Origin: a virus | DNA length: 64,000 bases | Strand: one strand, 5' to 3' | Virus record (IMG/VR): IMGVR_UViG_3300032896_000001 | Span: 41,096-105,095 of that record | Shown here: in pieces, positions 1,018 through 43,996 of the stretch | Position numbering within the stretch: position 1 is the first letter of the stretch | How the letters are laid out: the number at the start of each line of letters is the position of its first letter | Notes under the pieces: generated by a model | Told to the model about the DNA's origin: nothing | Databases searched by the model: none | Seen by the model: only the letters and a program-made list of their open reading frames with translations | Translations under genes and position numbers: made by a program

Positions 1018-1049
1018 GGCCCGGTCGGTGAGTCACCACCGGCCGGGCC
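1018..1049 (+). other. Hairpin in the leader of the HNH gene
   Basis: An imperfect GC-rich stem-loop (arms around GGCCCGGTCGGTG and CACCACCGGCCGGGCC) lies between the capsid stop and the HNH start at 1085. It is followed by AAGCCTGCCAACC and then the ribosome site. A hairpin with a similar follow-on (AAGCAAGCCAACC) precedes the HNH gene at 32357, so this may be a leader carried by both mobile endonuclease genes, or a terminator of the capsid transcript. Confidence 0.45.
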
Positions 1050-1084
1050 AAGCCTGCCAACCCGCCATCACCGGGAGACAGACC

Positions 1085-2155
1085 GTGATCAACCCTACGG
1101 AAGAAAACCCTGCTCGCAAGGGCGAGCCGTGCCCTCTCGTGGAGAACGGCAAGATCTGCGGGGAGCCCGTGTTCGCGCGCGGGTGGTGCTCGAAGCACTA
1201 CACGACCGCGAGGCGCTTCGGCGACCCGCTGTTCCCTGTGAAGCGCCGCGGCAAGCAGGGCGGCAAGTGTCTCGCGCCCGAGGGGTGCGACAAGCCGGCC
1301 AAGGCGCACAATCTCTGCGAGAACCACCGCAGGCTGATGGCCAAGTACGGCGAGACGACACCCTCGCGCGAGCGGCGTTTCTGGGCGAAGGTCGACAAGA
1401 GCGGCGGCCCCGACGCCTGCTGGCCTTGGACCGGCTGGTGTCAGAAGAACGGCTACGGCCAGTACGGCTCCACTCGCAACGGCTCGAACCTGGTCCACCG
1501 CATCGCCTACGAGTACCTAGTCGACCCCATCCCGGACGGCCTCGTACTCGACCACCTGTGCCACACGGCCGACCCGCAGTGCGCAGACAACGACGCCTGC
1601 CCGCACCGCAAATGCTGCAACCCGAAACACGGGGAGCCCGTCACCAGGCGCGAGAACATCGCCCGAGGTCGAGGCGGCGACTCGTGGGGCTACGTGCCCG
1701 ATCCCATCCCGGCCCCGGCCGAGAAGCCGATCAACTGCGTCAAGTGCGGCCGCACGGACAAGCCCGTCTACAAGAGCGGCATGTGCCGCCTCTGCTACCG
1801 CAAGCGTCACGAAGACCCCGCTTTCATGCCCCGGGCGGAGCGAACGCTCGAGGTCCGCTTCTGGTCCAAGGTCGACAAGGACGGCCCGCTCCCTTATGAG
1901 CGGCTTGACCTGGGGCCGTGCTGGATCTGGACCGCCGGCATCAATAAGACGACCGGCTATGCCCGATTCGCCGTCAAGCATGGCGAGATGATGGACGGCC
2001 ACCGCCTCTCGTACCTAATGGCCCACGGCTCGATCCCCGAGAAGCACGACGTGCATCACGTGTGCCTCCGGCGGGCCTGCGTTAACCCGGCCCACCTCGA
2101 GGCCGTGACTCGATCTGTCAACCTCGCCGAGCGGAAGAACCGCCGGAGCAGGTAG
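1085..2155 (+). CDS. Double-domain HNH endonuclease (free-standing, homing type)
   Basis: This 356-aa protein has two copies of the actinophage HNH unit. The first runs from FWAKVDKS through CWPWTGW, HRIAYEYL and DHLCHTADPQC to CNPKH. The second runs from FWSKVDKDGP through CWIWTAG, HRLSYLMAHG and DVHHVCLRRACVNPAHL. CxxC-type zinc knuckles precede each unit (residues about 15-60 and 215-240). GTG 1085 is preferred over the in-frame GTG 1028 because GGGAGA lies just upstream of it and the earlier codons fall in the leader hairpin. Such genes are usually mobile and make site-specific breaks; this one sits between capsid and accessory genes. Confidence 0.88.
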   Translation: MINPTEENPARKGEPCPLVENGKICGEPVFARGWCSKHYTTARRFGDPLFPVKRRGKQGGKCLAPEGCDKPAKAHNLCENHRRLMAKYGETTPSRERRFWAKVDKSGGPDACWPWTGWCQKNGYGQYGSTRNGSNLVHRIAYEYLVDPIPDGLVLDHLCHTADPQCADNDACPHRKCCNPKHGEPVTRRENIARGRGGDSWGYVPDPIPAPAEKPINCVKCGRTDKPVYKSGMCRLCYRKRHEDPAFMPRAERTLEVRFWSKVDKDGPLPYERLDLGPCWIWTAGINKTTGYARFAVKHGEMMDGHRLSYLMAHGSIPEKHDVHHVCLRRACVNPAHLEAVTRSVNLAERKNRRSR

Positions 2156-39177: not shown

Positions 39178-40170
39178 TCAGCTGGCGGCGGCGCAGGCCC
39201 CGGTGATGTCCCCGGTGTTGGCGTTGAACGCCTGCACCATCGTTTCCTGCACCTTCGGCGAGGTGCAGTTCTCGCTGGTCGCAAGGTAGGTGAACGAGTA
39301 GTCAGGCTGGCTCACCGCGCCCGCCCCGGCGGACGACGCGATCTTCGTGCCGGCCGGGAAGAACGGCGCGTACCAGGCGGCGTCGCCGCTGCCCGACGCG
39401 TACGAGTCGTTCAGGTTGTTCACCGTCGCGGGCACCCCGGAGGAGCTGAGGGAACCCGAGTCGGCGTAGAACTCGAAATCAAACGAGCCGTCGAGCGTCC
39501 CCTGCACGATGCCGTCGATGGCCTTCCCGCCGAGGGGGGAGTTCGCCCCCGCGAGGGTCTGGAAGGTCCCGTCCATCGACGCGGTGCCCGTGTAGTAGTA
39601 GCAGGTCGCGTTGCCGGCGGGGGCGTTGGAGCACTCCGACAGGTCGGCGGCGGCGTGCCGGGTGATGCTGACGTCGAACGCGAAGTCGTCCAGCGCCCAG
39701 ATCCCGCCGTTCGCCAGCGTGAGCGGCTCGGTCCCGCTCGCGCTGTCCGGGTCGTTGCTCACCGAGATGTCGGCGGACGCGGTGACCGGGGCGGCGTTCG
39801 CCCCCGGGGCCCCCGCGGGACCCGCAGGGCCCGCCGGGCCGGTCGCCCCGGTCGCCCCGGTCGCGCCCTTCGGCCCCGTCGCCCCGGTCGCGCCCGCGGC
39901 TCCCCTGGGGCCGGTCACGCCCCAGTAGACGAGGAACGAGCCGGACGGGCAGGTGGTCCCGGACGTGTTCGACTCGAAGACGCGCTCCAGCACCCGGCCG
40001 GAGCCGGTCACGCAGCCGTGCAGGGTCCCCGCGGGGATGGAGACGGCGGCGGCGCTCGCGCCGAGCGCCCCGGTCGCGGCCATCGCGATGCCGCCCCCGG
40101 CCAGCGCGAGGGCGACGGCGCCCCCGCCGACGGCGATCCGCAACGGCATCCGCCTAACAGACTTCAACAT
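39178..40170 (-). CDS. Secreted collagen-like protein
   Basis: 330 aa from ATG 40170 (AGGAG upstream). Residues 1-32 form a Sec signal (basic RRMPLR, hydrophobic core AVALALAGGGIAMAA). A beta-rich block and then a short collagen-like Gly-x-y run (about residues 88-125, including GPKGATGATGATGP and GPAGPAGAPG) follow, and a large C-terminal beta domain with Cys pairs ends the protein. This resembles chromosomal actinomycete surface proteins and looks like a lysogenic-conversion gene. Confidence 0.78.
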   Translation of the reverse strand: MLKSVRRMPLRIAVGGGAVALALAGGGIAMAATGALGASAAAVSIPAGTLHGCVTGSGRVLERVFESNTSGTTCPSGSFLVYWGVTGPRGAAGATGATGPKGATGATGATGPAGPAGPAGAPGANAAPVTASADISVSNDPDSASGTEPLTLANGGIWALDDFAFDVSITRHAAADLSECSNAPAGNATCYYYTGTASMDGTFQTLAGANSPLGGKAIDGIVQGTLDGSFDFEFYADSGSLSSSGVPATVNNLNDSYASGSGDAAWYAPFFPAGTKIASSAGAGAVSQPDYSFTYLATSENCTSPKVQETMVQAFNANTGDITGACAAAS

Positions 40171-40557
40171 GGAACTACTCCTCGGTTTAACGGACCTGCC
40201 CGGGTTATCCCGGGCAGGGGCCTGTGGGGCGGCGAGCCGCCGCTGCGGGGGCCGCGCGCGGACCCGGGGCGGCCGCGCGGCCGCCACCCGGGGTCCGGGG
40301 ACCTCCCCTATCTCGTCCTCCGCGACCCTGAGCGCCTCCCGCTCGCCGGCGCCGAGCAGGCCGAACTGGTCCCCCGCGGCCGGCCTCGCGTGCGCGGGGG
40401 GCCCTGCCGCCGCCGGCGCCGCCTGCGCGGCCGCCATCCCCGCGAGCACCTCGAGGGCGCTGAGCTGATCGCCCGTCGCCGGGCCGGTGCACGGGCGCCC
40501 CCCTAGCCGCCAGTCGTTGGGCAGGGTGTCGTCGTTAGGGATGGTGGGGGTGCTCAC
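40171..40557 (-). CDS. Hypothetical ORF upstream of, and in frame with, the collagen-like gene
   Basis: GTG 40557 overlaps the excisionase-like stop (GTGA). About 90 residues with normal composition (STPTIPNDDTLPNDWRLGG onward) are followed by an Arg/Pro-rich stretch with no stop before ATG 40170. Either a fused 459-aa protein exists or, more likely, this is a small gene whose stop is hidden by a frame error. The 3' boundary is set at the next start only for convenience. Confidence 0.4.
40196..40217 (-). promoter_or_regulatory. Perfect 9-bp hairpin/palindrome before the collagen-like gene
   Basis: CTGCCCGGG, TTAT, CCCGGGCAG. It lies 26 bp upstream of the ATG of the collagen-like gene and could be an operator or a terminator of the upstream leftward transcript. 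Confidence 0.5.
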
Positions 40558-40847
40558 GCGGCGCTCCGCCTTTTCTGCTGCTTGGACCTCGAGGCCGCGG
40601 TCGCGACGGTGCGCGGCGCGGCCGGCTTGTTCAGTCCCCTGGCTATCTCCGCGAGGTTCGCGGGGGAGAACACGATCGACCTGCCGACCCGCGTGCACGG
40701 GAACAGGCCGCTGCGGGCCCTCTTGAGCAGCCAGTAGCCGGTCGTCTTCCCCGAGGGGTCGAGAATGCCCGCCGCCTCGGCGGGCGTGTAGTGAACGGGG
40801 GCGCCGACTGCGGCGAGCTCCTCCGGGGACGGCCGTGCCGTCGTCAT
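40554..40847 (-). CDS. Excisionase-like HTH protein
   Basis: 97 aa from ATG 40847 (ATGA overlap with the XRE gene). YTPAEAAGILDPSGKTTGYW and LFPCTRVGRSIVFSPANLAE make a winged-helix of the Xis/MerR superfamily. The basic C-terminus is consistent with DNA binding. Its position just left of the immunity region and opposite the integrase fits an Xis-type directionality factor. Confidence 0.7.
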   Translation of the reverse strand: MTTARPSPEELAAVGAPVHYTPAEAAGILDPSGKTTGYWLLKRARSGLFPCTRVGRSIVFSPANLAEIARGLNKPAAPRTVATAASRSKQQKRRSAA

Positions 40848-41098
40848 TGCTCCTCCTGCTCTGCCTGCTCTGCCTGCTCGAGTCGAGCGAGCAGGTCCGC
40901 GTACCGGGCTGCGCGCTCGCCGTGCGGCATCTTCCGTCCCGCCTCCCAGTCGGCCACCGTCGGCTGGGTCACGCCCACCGCCTCGGCCACCTCGGCCTGC
41001 GACAGGCGGGATCGCTTCCTGATCTCCCGCACCCGCCCGCTGGCCACGTCCGCGCGCAGGCGCGCCAGCGTCACGGCGCTGTCCGCCGATATCGTCAT
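40844..41098 (-). CDS. Cro-like XRE DNA-binding protein
   Basis: 84 aa from ATG 41098 with GGAAGGA upstream. LSQAEVAEAVGVTQPTVADWEAGRK is a clear helix-turn-helix of the XRE family; a polar tail (EQAEQAEQEEQ) follows. It is transcribed away from the repressor-like gene at 41181 and probably governs the lytic side. Confidence 0.82.
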   Translation of the reverse strand: MTISADSAVTLARLRADVASGRVREIRKRSRLSQAEVAEAVGVTQPTVADWEAGRKMPHGERAARYADLLARLEQAEQAEQEEQ

Positions 41099-41180
41099 AG
41101 GATTCCTTCCGACCACACATGGGGATACTAATCCTATTTCAGGATGCGGCGCGACTACATAGCCATGTAATGTCTGATCC
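41099..41180. promoter_or_regulatory. Divergent immunity operator/promoter region
   Basis: The 82-bp gap between divergent XRE genes holds overlapping inverted repeats: GGAT ACTA ATCC (41123-41134), ATCCT ATTTC AGGAT (41131-41145) and TACAT AGCC ATGTA (41156-41169). AGGAT also appears at 41099-41103. TAGTAT read leftward in this region is a candidate -10 element. It is the natural switch between lysogenic and lytic transcription. Confidence 0.7.
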
Positions 41181-41690
41181 ATGTCATCGGATGACGAGCG
41201 ACTCCGCGGCGAGCGGAAGGCGTTCGGCGAGAACCTCCGCGCCGTCCGCGAGCGCCGCGGCACGGGCCAGCGGGAACTCGCCGCGCGCATGGCCGCGCAG
41301 GGCTACCCGTGGCACCAGAACACGGTCACCAGGGTCGAGGCGGGCGACCGGTCCGTCTCCTTCTACGAGGCGATGGCCCTCGCGGCGCTCCTCGGCGTGA
41401 CGACGGACCGGTTCACCTGGTCGGCCCCGGAGGCGGCCGAGCGGGAGATGGCCGCCGCCGCCGCCGCGCGGCTTCGCGGGGCGTGGCGCGAGCTCGCCCT
41501 CGCGAAGGCGCGGCTCGACGACGCCCGCGACGCCGCGGCGCGCACCGCCGAGCGCGGCGCGAAGTCGGAGTTTCCCCGCGTCGCCGAGGCGGCGCGCGGG
41601 ATCGCCGAGGACATCGAGGACTGCACGGCCGAGCTCGCGCTCGCCGAGGCGGACAGGATCAGGGAGCGCGACGAGAAAGGCGGCGGCTGA
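41181..41690 (+). CDS. XRE-family repressor-like protein
   Basis: 169 aa from ATG 41181. The N-terminal HTH (ENLRAVRERRGTGQRELAAR onward, then NTVTRVEAGDRSVSFYEAMA) is of XRE type. The remainder is a long Ala/Arg/Glu-rich helix, probably for dimerisation. No peptidase domain is present. Its TGATG overlaps the integrase start, so repressor and integrase are translationally coupled. The likely role is the immunity repressor. Confidence 0.75.
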   Translation: MSSDDERLRGERKAFGENLRAVRERRGTGQRELAARMAAQGYPWHQNTVTRVEAGDRSVSFYEAMALAALLGVTTDRFTWSAPEAAEREMAAAAAARLRGAWRELALAKARLDDARDAAARTAERGAKSEFPRVAEAARGIAEDIEDCTAELALAEADRIRERDEKGGG

Positions 41691-43375
41691 TGGCGTACGC
41701 GGAGAGAGTGCCGTCCCCGAGGGGCGACTACTGGCGGGGCCGGTACAGGGATGCGGGCGGGGGCTGGGTGACCGTCCGCGACGAGAACGGCGATGTCATC
41801 CGGTTCGCGCTCAAGCAGGACGCGAAGAACGCCGCCGACGACCGCCAGTCCGACGTCCGCAACGGCCGGGTGGCCAAGCCGGCGTCCGAGATGACCTTCG
41901 CCGACTGGGCCGAGGAATGGTACGGGGGGCTGAACCTCGCCTGGTCGACGATGGCGGGGCGCAGGCGCCACCTAGACGATCACCTCCTCAAGGAGTTCGG
42001 CGCGGTGCGCCTGGCCGACATCACCGAGGCGATGATCGGCGCCTGGGAGATGAAAGAGCGCAAGGAGGGCAAGAAGCCCGCCAGCATCGCGACATGGCGC
42101 GGCACCCTTCACACCTGCCTCGAGGACGCGGTGCCCGAGATCATCAGCCAGAACCCGGCGCGCCGGAAGGGGAACCGCGGCAAGCGGGCGGACAAGGGCA
42201 AGGGCCGCGGGCCGGAGAAGCCGTTCACCGACGCCCTCGGCGTGCTCCTTATATCCGAGCGGATGGCGATCCTCACCGGCCAGGACCAGGAGTTCGTGAT
42301 GAGCCAGGCGTCGTTCTGGGGGGCACTCCGCCTAGGCGAGCTCGTCGGCCTCGAGCGGCGGTACCTCCGGACGGAGGGGCTGCGGGTGGAGTGGCAGCTG
42401 CACCAGCTCGACCTCCAGCAGGCGAGGGAGGGCGAGGCCGACGTCGCGGCGACGATGCGGGCGGAGGCGCCCGGGGGCCTCCTGCGCTGCCCGCCGAAGG
42501 ACAACTCGTTCGGCGACGTGATCCTCGCCCCGTTCATGACGGCGATGCTCGACGGGTTCGCGGCGTCCCGCCCGGCCCGCTCGTGCCCGTGCCACGGTCA
42601 CGCCTACCTGTTCCGGGGGTTCGGCGTCCCGTCCGGCGGCCGGGCGCCCGACGGCTCCGTGACGCTGGCCGACCTGGCCGCGATCGCGGGCGTGTCGCCG
42701 ACCACGGCGCGCAAGGCGCTGACGGGCGCGGCCGGGATATCGGCGGTCGTGCGGAAGCGCGTCGAGGAGACCGCGGCCGCGACCGGCTTCGCGCGCCGCC
42801 GCGCGGCGGCCGACCCGGCGTGGCACTGGCGCCGCAGCGCGTTCGAGGCGCTGGTGTCCGCTGCGGCGACCGGCGAGCTCCCCAAGGCCGGCCGGGGGCT
42901 GCCGAAGCGCCCCGTGCCGCTCGGCGGCGAGTGGCCGGGGACGCGGCTGAGGGGGCCGGGCGCGATCAGCCGGGCGACGCTGCGCTGGGAGCCGGTGGCG
43001 CCGGGCCTGACCCCGCACCTGATGGCGCGCCACTCGATGCGCACGCTGATGGAGGAGAAGCGGATCCCGCACATCATGTCCGAGACCCACCTGCGGCACG
43101 ACATCCCCGGGGTGTCGGGGGCCTACCGCCACGTGACCGACAACATGAGGGAGGAGCTCGCCGCGATGATGACCGCGGAGCACGAGAGGGCCCTCGACGC
43201 CCGGCTCGCGATGTCGCCCCGCTCCCCCGTGGCGGTCCTCGACGCGATGCTTCTCGAGCGCTCGGAGGCCCGGAAAATCCGGGCCGTCTCCAGAATCTCA
43301 CCAGAACATGACAATGCGGTAGTTTCCCTCCCGACCGGTACGCGGCCTGACCTGCGGAGGGATGGTCGTGCGTGA
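41690..43375 (+). CDS. int: Tyrosine integrase with an internal LacI-type HTH
   Basis: 561 aa from ATG 41690. The N-terminal arm-binding and core-binding regions run to about residue 175. The catalytic Arg is in FWGALRLGE (R214), box II is TPHLMARHSMRTLMEE (H443/H448), and RHDIPGVSGAYRHV carries H470 and Tyr479. Between R214 and box II, residues 323-371 (VTLADLAAIAGVSPTTARKA, then GISAVVRKRVEETAAATGF) form a LacI-family HTH. Box II also has one residue more than the usual HxLRHT pattern. It integrates and excises phage DNA. Confidence 0.9.
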   Translation: MAYAERVPSPRGDYWRGRYRDAGGGWVTVRDENGDVIRFALKQDAKNAADDRQSDVRNGRVAKPASEMTFADWAEEWYGGLNLAWSTMAGRRRHLDDHLLKEFGAVRLADITEAMIGAWEMKERKEGKKPASIATWRGTLHTCLEDAVPEIISQNPARRKGNRGKRADKGKGRGPEKPFTDALGVLLISERMAILTGQDQEFVMSQASFWGALRLGELVGLERRYLRTEGLRVEWQLHQLDLQQAREGEADVAATMRAEAPGGLLRCPPKDNSFGDVILAPFMTAMLDGFAASRPARSCPCHGHAYLFRGFGVPSGGRAPDGSVTLADLAAIAGVSPTTARKALTGAAGISAVVRKRVEETAAATGFARRRAAADPAWHWRRSAFEALVSAAATGELPKAGRGLPKRPVPLGGEWPGTRLRGPGAISRATLRWEPVAPGLTPHLMARHSMRTLMEEKRIPHIMSETHLRHDIPGVSGAYRHVTDNMREELAAMMTAEHERALDARLAMSPRSPVAVLDAMLLERSEARKIRAVSRISPEHDNAVVSLPTGTRPDLRRDGRA

Positions 43376-43561
43376 GCTACCGAGCCCCTTCGCCAGTACA
43401 AGGGGGTCCGCGAAAAAATCTCGTGCAGTTGTCGCAGGTGACAACGCTGCGTGTTCGGCCGCCCAGGTAGCGGCTGCGCGTTCCGGGGCGTTCCCGTGCG
43501 CTCCGGGGTTCTCCGGGGCGATGTCGTCCCCAGATCGTCCCCAGAATTGGAGCGCACGCGC
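43376..43561 (+). other. attP candidate region
   Basis: No gene is visible in these 186 bp. They contain the inverted repeat GTTGTC GCAGGT GACAAC (43428-43445), two tandem 11-bp TCGTCCCCAGA units (43524-43545), and three TCCGGGG clusters (43474-43520). Placement directly after the integrase and the arm-type repeats suits a phage attachment site, but the core sequence cannot be identified without the host. Confidence 0.45.
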
Positions 43562-43996
43562 GTGACGCGAGTGACGACGAGCCGCGAGGTGCCCGCGTGC
43601 TGGACATGGCCGGCCCCGACGGCGGAGGCCCTGGAGAAGGTCCGCCGCCGGATGGTCGCCGACGCCGAGCAGGACGGCGTCGGCTGGCGCCCCAGCCCCC
43701 AGGACGTCCGCTGGGAACTGATGGATCAGTGGAAGCGCGGCCGGTGCGCGATATGCGGCCGGCGCACAGGCAGGCTGATCGAGGATCATGATCACGAAAC
43801 CGGGCTGTTCCGGGGCTGGCTATGCCGGGCCTGCAACACCTGCGAAGGGTATGCAGGGGACCGCGAGCCCTTCGCCGCGTACCGTGAGCGGAGCCCGGCC
43901 ATCATCTTTAACCTCAAGTCGCAGTACTCCAACCTCTACGCCTGGGGGTCCTCGACGAACGTCACGCCTCCCGCATCTTCTCCGGGTCAGCGATGA
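43562..43996 (+). CDS. Recombination endonuclease VII-like protein
   Basis: 144 aa from GTG 43562 (GTG 43571 is also possible). The core RCAICGRRTGRLIEDHDHET and GLFRGWLCRACNTCEGYAGD matches endonuclease VII: CxxC, DHDH, and RG.LC..CN. It resolves branched DNA during packaging or homologous recombination. It is the only rightward gene between the integrase and the leftward right arm; the last 35 bp overlap the end of the next gene. Confidence 0.85.
   Translation: MTRVTTSREVPACWTWPAPTAEALEKVRRRMVADAEQDGVGWRPSPQDVRWELMDQWKRGRCAICGRRTGRLIEDHDHETGLFRGWLCRACNTCEGYAGDREPFAAYRERSPAIIFNLKSQYSNLYAWGSSTNVTPPASSPGQR

What the first reader, a model, noticed from the sequence alone, without database searches (positions are those of the whole stretch)
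42656..42802. LacI-type helix-turn-helix nested inside the integrase catalytic domain
Residues 323-371 of the tyrosine integrase (VTLADLAAIAGVSPTTARKA, then SAVVRKRVEETAAATGF) read like the DNA-binding headpiece of a LacI repressor, located between catalytic Arg214 and the His/Arg box II. A recombinase with an internal HTH could bind arm sites, its own promoter or a host operator, linking integration to regulation. Box II also has one residue more than usual (TPHLMARHS).
Basis: partly seen in the sequence, partly recalled or inferred. Interest (0 to 1): 0.82.

Follow-up and report, generated by a model that had tools for sequence, protein, structure and literature searches.

The report
Phage integrase containing a repressor DNA-binding domain
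A tailed phage of actinobacteria carries a DNA-inserting enzyme with a LacI-repressor-type DNA-binding head built into the middle of its catalytic domain; this fused form is shared by about a hundred examined actinobacterial mobile elements, sits beside tRNA genes like a working integrase, and is labelled as a transcription repressor in at least two public plasmid records.

Summary
Residues 324-367 of the 561-aa tyrosine integrase (window 41690-43375) are a LacI-type headpiece. Pfam LacI scores E=2e-4 (below cut-off) in the window protein, but up to 1e-17 in relatives. AlphaFold2 places its three helices between low-confidence linkers; Foldseek aligns them to lac repressor headpieces (51 residues, 1.6-1.8 A). 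HTH-less relatives show a clean gap here, so it is an inserted domain in a catalytic-domain loop. All 80 best genome loci, two plasmids and 17 of 20 IMG/VR loci carry it. The tree needs two gain/loss events. The HTH is nearly as conserved as the catalytic domain (57% vs 60% identity; linkers 30-41%) and under purifying selection: neither chance nor decay. About 24 loci abut tRNA-Pro(CGG), others Ile/Val/His/Ala, as expected of tRNA integrases. It is not a LacI regulator: no effector domain. Best reading: an extra DNA-contacting module in the recombination complex; its target is unknown. My candidate site (TGACCTG) occurs equally near HTH-less relatives, and no LacI-type operator is enriched. 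The extra box II residue is real, clade-wide and unrelated to the HTH. No paper found in the held library describes this architecture.

The parts
41690..43375 (+). tyrosine integrase with nested LacI-type HTH, 561 aa; start codon overlaps the stop of the upstream Xre gene
   Evidence: fold match to Tn1549 and lambda integrases
41690..41884 (+). N-terminal residues 1-65, three strands and a helix: probable arm-DNA-binding domain (inference from order of secondary structure; no family hit)
41894..42169 (+). core-binding SAM-like domain, residues 69-160 (PF14659 match 69-118)
42329..42331 (+). catalytic Arg214
   Evidence: invariant
42497..42499 (+). catalytic Lys270
   Evidence: invariant
42659..42790 (+). 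inserted LacI-type headpiece, residues 324-367; helices 326-333, 337-345, 352-365
43010..43036 (+). box II TPHLMARHS (His443, Arg447), one residue longer than usual
43124..43126 (+). catalytic Tyr479
   Evidence: invariant
43385..43406 (.). candidate attP core, CCCCTTCGCCAGTACAAGGGGG, imperfect inverted repeat; the counterpart in L089 matches the tRNA-Pro(CGG) anticodon arm
43428..43445 (.). palindrome GTTGTC-GCAGGT-GACAAC, once in the 105-kb record; kept in 3 of 4 clade members
43525..43545 (+). two direct repeats CGTCCCCAGA, 11 bp apart: candidate arm-type sites, with counterparts in relatives
41181..41690 (+). Xre-type HTH regulator directly upstream of int
40844..41191 (-). second, divergently transcribed Xre-type regulator (start codon not settled)

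Best explanation
This is a phage tyrosine integrase of the tRNA-gene-targeting kind into whose catalytic domain a LacI-type headpiece was inserted, probably once, in an ancestor of an actinobacterial integrase clade. The headpiece hangs on two flexible linkers from the loop just before the helix that, by order of elements, corresponds to the one entering the major groove of the core site in Cre. Most likely it acts as an additional DNA-contacting module inside the recombination complex, binding DNA next to the core site and so adding affinity or specificity for the att sites or favouring one direction of recombination. Shown: the domain (sequence and predicted fold), its insertion point, its conservation, the tRNA-adjacent placement of relatives. 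Inferred: that it binds DNA, that this DNA is near the core, and what it does for the reaction.
For: LacI profile match in the window protein and 32 of 35 relatives; the family profile finds CytR and Lac headpieces at 2e-11 to 3e-11. AlphaFold2: HTH helices between linkers of pLDDT <50; Foldseek to lac repressor headpiece 1l1m, TM 0.73 by target, rmsd 1.6. Clean absence in HTH-less relatives. Insert lies between strand AYLF and helix HWRRSAFEA. HTH 57% mean identity among 41 representatives versus 60-61% in the catalytic parts and 41% and 30% in the linkers; positions equivalent to LacI Thr19, Ser21, Asn25 (phosphate contacts, own knowledge) kept in 40, 37 and 35 of 41. dN/dS 0.13-0.46 in the window clade. 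About 24 loci abut tRNA-Pro(CGG) and five abut other tRNAs, with arm-type repeats. Presence on the tree needs two changes, shuffled mean 18.9.
Against: No DNA site specific to HTH-bearing members was found. HTH-less relatives also sit beside tRNA genes, so the HTH is not needed for integration as such. In the window clade two of the three phosphate-contact positions are changed (S to R, N to T or A), so DNA binding there may be altered. Placement relative to DNA rests on the topology of known recombinases, not on a modelled complex.
Confidence: 0.55

Rival explanations
1. The HTH makes the integrase its own repressor or a repressor of neighbouring phage genes: it binds an operator near the int/Xre promoters and couples integration to lysogeny control.
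For: Headpieces of 65-76% identity to that of a Streptomyces member occur in ordinary host LacI regulators; int lies next to two Xre regulators.
Against: No LacI-type palindrome enriched upstream of int in HTH-bearing loci versus shuffled sequence or HTH-less loci; LacI repressors bind as dimers with hinge helix and effector domain (own knowledge), both absent here; the window's int start overlaps the upstream gene, so it is probably co-transcribed with it.
Confidence: 0.2
2. The HTH binds the DNA of a host operator or of the tRNA gene itself (for example the conserved T-arm sequence of attB), acting as a target-search tether.
For: Family members target several different tRNAs while the recognition-helix residues stay mostly T/V-G-N, as expected for one common target; closely similar headpieces exist in host repressors.
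Against: HTH-less relatives also use tRNA genes; no direct evidence; the window clade has different recognition residues (P/A-T-K) and a core that was not found as a host site.
Confidence: 0.14
3. The insert is a structural spacer or protein-protein contact (tetramer or excision-factor interface) that no longer binds DNA.
For: Absence tolerated in four relatives next to or inside the clade; the window clade has lost several canonical contact residues.
Against: DNA-contact positions are conserved across most of the family.
Confidence: 0.1
4. Chance resemblance, or a normal part of the catalytic fold.
For: The window protein alone scores below Pfam's cut-off.
Against: Relatives score to 1e-17, others lack the segment cleanly, and it is predicted as a discrete domain.
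Confidence: 0.01

Closest known systems
Tyrosine integrases of actinobacterial phages and AICEs (pSAM2 kind; PF14659 + PF00589)
   Same: arm-like N-terminus, SAM-like core-binding domain, R-K-H-R-H-Y catalytic set, tRNA-adjacent insertion, arm-type repeats
   Different: carry no LacI-type HTH in the catalytic domain
Tn1549 integrase (PDB 6emy)
   Same: best fold match of the whole model; its catalytic domain also carries an extra element, a beta-hairpin (own knowledge)
   Different: no HTH insert
LacI/GalR repressors (lac repressor headpiece 1l1m, CytR 2l8n, CcpA 1rzr)
   Same: the 44-residue headpiece, in sequence and predicted fold
   Different: no hinge helix, no ligand-binding effector domain; headpiece is internal, not N-terminal
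WP_311301324.1 (Streptomyces plasmid pSITFR-21c) and WP_131103038.1 (Streptomonospora plasmid phiM2)
   Same: same architecture, on circular 103-kb and 90-kb elements with tRNA-Pro-like sequence after int
   Different: named LacI family DNA-binding transcriptional regulator in the records; 39% and 31% identical to the window protein

Membership tests
Tyrosine recombinase / phage integrase | catalytic R, K, H, R, H/W, Y in order | tested here: met
   R214, K270, H443, H470, Y479 invariant and R447 nearly invariant in 35 sequences; box II spacing is one residue longer than usual
Tyrosine recombinase / phage integrase | core-binding domain and recombinase fold | tested here: met
   PF14659 in 30 of 35 and PF00589 in 27 of 35 members, though weak or absent in the window protein itself; predicted fold matches Tn1549 and lambda Int
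Tyrosine recombinase / phage integrase | site-specific recombination activity | not testable with these tools
   indirect only: relatives lie beside tRNA genes
LacI/GalR transcriptional repressor | LacI-type HTH headpiece | tested here: met
LacI/GalR transcriptional repressor | hinge helix followed by ligand-binding effector domain | tested here: not met
   the headpiece is followed directly by catalytic-domain sequence; no effector-domain hit
tRNA-gene-targeting integrases of actinobacterial elements | int gene abutting a tRNA gene when integrated, tRNA-like core in attP | tested here: inconclusive
   met for many relatives; for the window the core candidate occurs once per record and its host target was not found in 397 genomes

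The most novel reading that the evidence does not exclude
The integrase uses a captured host-repressor headpiece to read a second DNA signal (a host operator or a tRNA-internal sequence) and so gates where or when the phage integrates: a recombinase with a built-in transcription-factor head.
Probability: 0.15. Interest if true: 0.85.

Novelty: new variant of a known kind. Interest (0 to 1): 0.62.

Why it matters
Tyrosine integrases of this kind normally have an arm-binding part and a core-binding/catalytic part. A third, modular DNA-reading head inside the catalytic domain would show a natural way of adding specificity to these enzymes, which is an open problem for their use as genome tools. 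It also means that a group of integrases can be hidden in databases under a repressor name, so that elements carrying them may be missed by annotation.

Tried and rejected
(1) HTH binds TGACCTG next to the att site: the motif is in 19 of 41 HTH-bearing and 13 of 25 HTH-less representatives, so it is not tied to the HTH. (2) LacI-type operator TGAANCGNTTCA near int or att: best matches no better than in shuffled sequence. (3) Host attB of the window's core: no exact 18-bp match in 397 genomes of the phylum, two one-mismatch hits in one genome judged chance; one unrelated low-GC viral contig shares the motif, judged chance. The phylum draw held many small genomes, so this is weak. (4) Box II extra residue as part of the same innovation: rejected, since it also occurs in HTH-less L129/L130 and most HTH members have normal spacing. 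(5) Sequenced phage records: no match for the window protein in 50,697 records and only partial matches (at most 42% coverage) for a Streptomyces relative. (6) Papers: no description found. Whether recognition residues track the tRNA target could not be decided: too few independent cases.

Full report
Observation. The integrase reads from ATG 41690 to the stop at 43373-43375 (561 aa). Pfam LacI matches residues 325-367 with E 2.2e-4, 21.4 bits, under the curated cut-off of 27; a profile search of the 105-kb virus record that holds the window finds this as its only LacI hit. phmmer against the PDB also ranks lac repressor headpieces first, weakly, at E 0.018.

Relatives. Two IMG/VR contigs encode proteins 91% and 80% identical. 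Two plasmid records (Streptomyces pSITFR-21c, Streptomonospora phiM2) encode full-length relatives named 'LacI family DNA-binding transcriptional regulator'. In these the LacI match reaches 1.6e-15. A scan of genome contigs finds 244 relatives, 80 kept, in Streptomyces, Actinomadura, Kibdelosporangium, Lentzea and other actinobacteria; a second scan of IMG/VR gives 20 loci. In a 35-member alignment 32 match LacI, best 1.2e-17; three (L102, L103, L104) lack the segment cleanly. A local HMM of the segment finds it in all 80 kept genome loci and in 17 of the 20 IMG/VR loci. The other 164 genome loci were not fetched.

Structure. AlphaFold2 on a 52-row alignment gives mean pLDDT 82.5; helices 326-333, 337-345 and 352-365 form the HTH, and parts of both flanks (312-321, 371-374) are below 50. 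Foldseek against the PDB matches the whole to Tn1549 and lambda integrases, and the insert on its own to lac repressor (1l1m, 51 residues, rmsd 1.6, TM 0.73 by target) and CcpA (1rzr, rmsd 0.8). The family profile finds CytR at 2e-11 and Lac at 3e-11. The insert lies between strand AYLF and helix HWRRSAFEA, which by order corresponds to the major-groove helix J of Cre (own knowledge, inferred from topology).

Evolution. On a tree built without the insert, presence of the HTH among 64 representatives needs two changes (shuffled mean 18.9, 0 of 500 as low). One gain at the base of a 45-member clade (support 97) and one loss in the L126/L127/L129/L130 group would do; two gains are not excluded. 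Mean pairwise identity among 41 HTH representatives is 57% in the HTH, 60-61% in the catalytic parts, 41% and 30% in the linkers. dN/dS in the window clade is 0.13-0.46 in the HTH, like the rest of the protein. The positions that contact phosphates in LacI are kept in most members, but the window clade is among the most divergent (SPTTARKAL against STGTVSNVL). Headpieces 65-76% identical to that of a Streptomyces member occur in ordinary LacI regulators of the same genomes, so a host regulator is a plausible donor.

Setting. Relatives abut tRNA genes: about 24 tRNA-Pro(CGG), two Ile(GAT), one each Val, His, Ala. Downstream of int there are 11-bp-period direct repeats such as TTCTCCCAGATTTCTCCCA; the window has CGTCCCCAGATCGTCCCCAGA at 43525-43545. 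The window's core candidate at 43385-43406 aligns in position with the tRNA-Pro anticodon-arm sequence of L089 and occurs once in each record of the clade, so these records show attP only. The window is a tailed phage: tape measure and minor tail proteins are present. Two Xre-type regulators stand back to back just upstream of int.

Function. The DNA target remains unknown. A conserved TGACCTG next to the att site looked promising but is equally frequent near HTH-less relatives (19/41 against 13/25). LacI-type operators are not enriched near int or att. I therefore commit to an accessory DNA contact in the recombination complex, at about 55%, on the strength of position, conservation, kept DNA-contact residues in most members, and the absence of any dimerising repressor module.

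Box II. The extra residue (HLMARH) is shared by the window clade and, independently, by L129/L130 (HGLARH), which lack the HTH; 123 ORFs have the usual spacing. It lies in a confidently predicted helix, where spacings of three and four both keep the two residues on one face (inference).

Known or new. NCBIfam has no model for this architecture; its hits are to LacI-family headpieces and weak Xer profiles, which may explain the repressor names. Searches of the held literature found no description; the tyrosine recombinase survey PMC8138268 mentions other catalytic-domain inserts but no HTH of this kind in the passages read. Most subscription papers and bioRxiv preprints are not covered, so a prior description cannot be excluded.

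Noticed in passing
L125 and L128 (relatives from the genome search): HTH-less relatives carry a different insert elsewhere in the catalytic domain, zinc-finger-like (CPxC...C...H); L103/L104/L124 carry yet another. This integrase lineage seems to accept inserted segments repeatedly.
   Followed up: partly
L129, L130: A different insert of some 60 residues just before the strand that precedes the HTH site, with no LacI HTH, and box II HGLARH.
   Followed up: partly
downstream of int in many loci, e.g. L010, L139, L143: TGACCTG(C/G) sits between int and the tRNA in actinobacterial integrases of several subfamilies, independent of the HTH; possible excision-factor or host-factor site.
   Followed up: partly
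window 43428-43445: Palindrome with 6-bp arms, GTTGTC-GCAGGT-GACAAC, unique in the 105-kb record, between core candidate and arm repeats.
   Followed up: partly
window 39181-40584 (-): Open frame with collagen-type G-x-x repeats (Pfam Collagen 3.3e-8).
   Followed up: no
window 43451-43996 (+): Recombination endonuclease VII domain (1.8e-14) directly after the att region; its listed start overlaps the arm repeats, so the true start is probably later.
   Followed up: no
window 1028-2155 (+): HNH endonuclease with two matched stretches, possibly an internal duplication.
   Followed up: no
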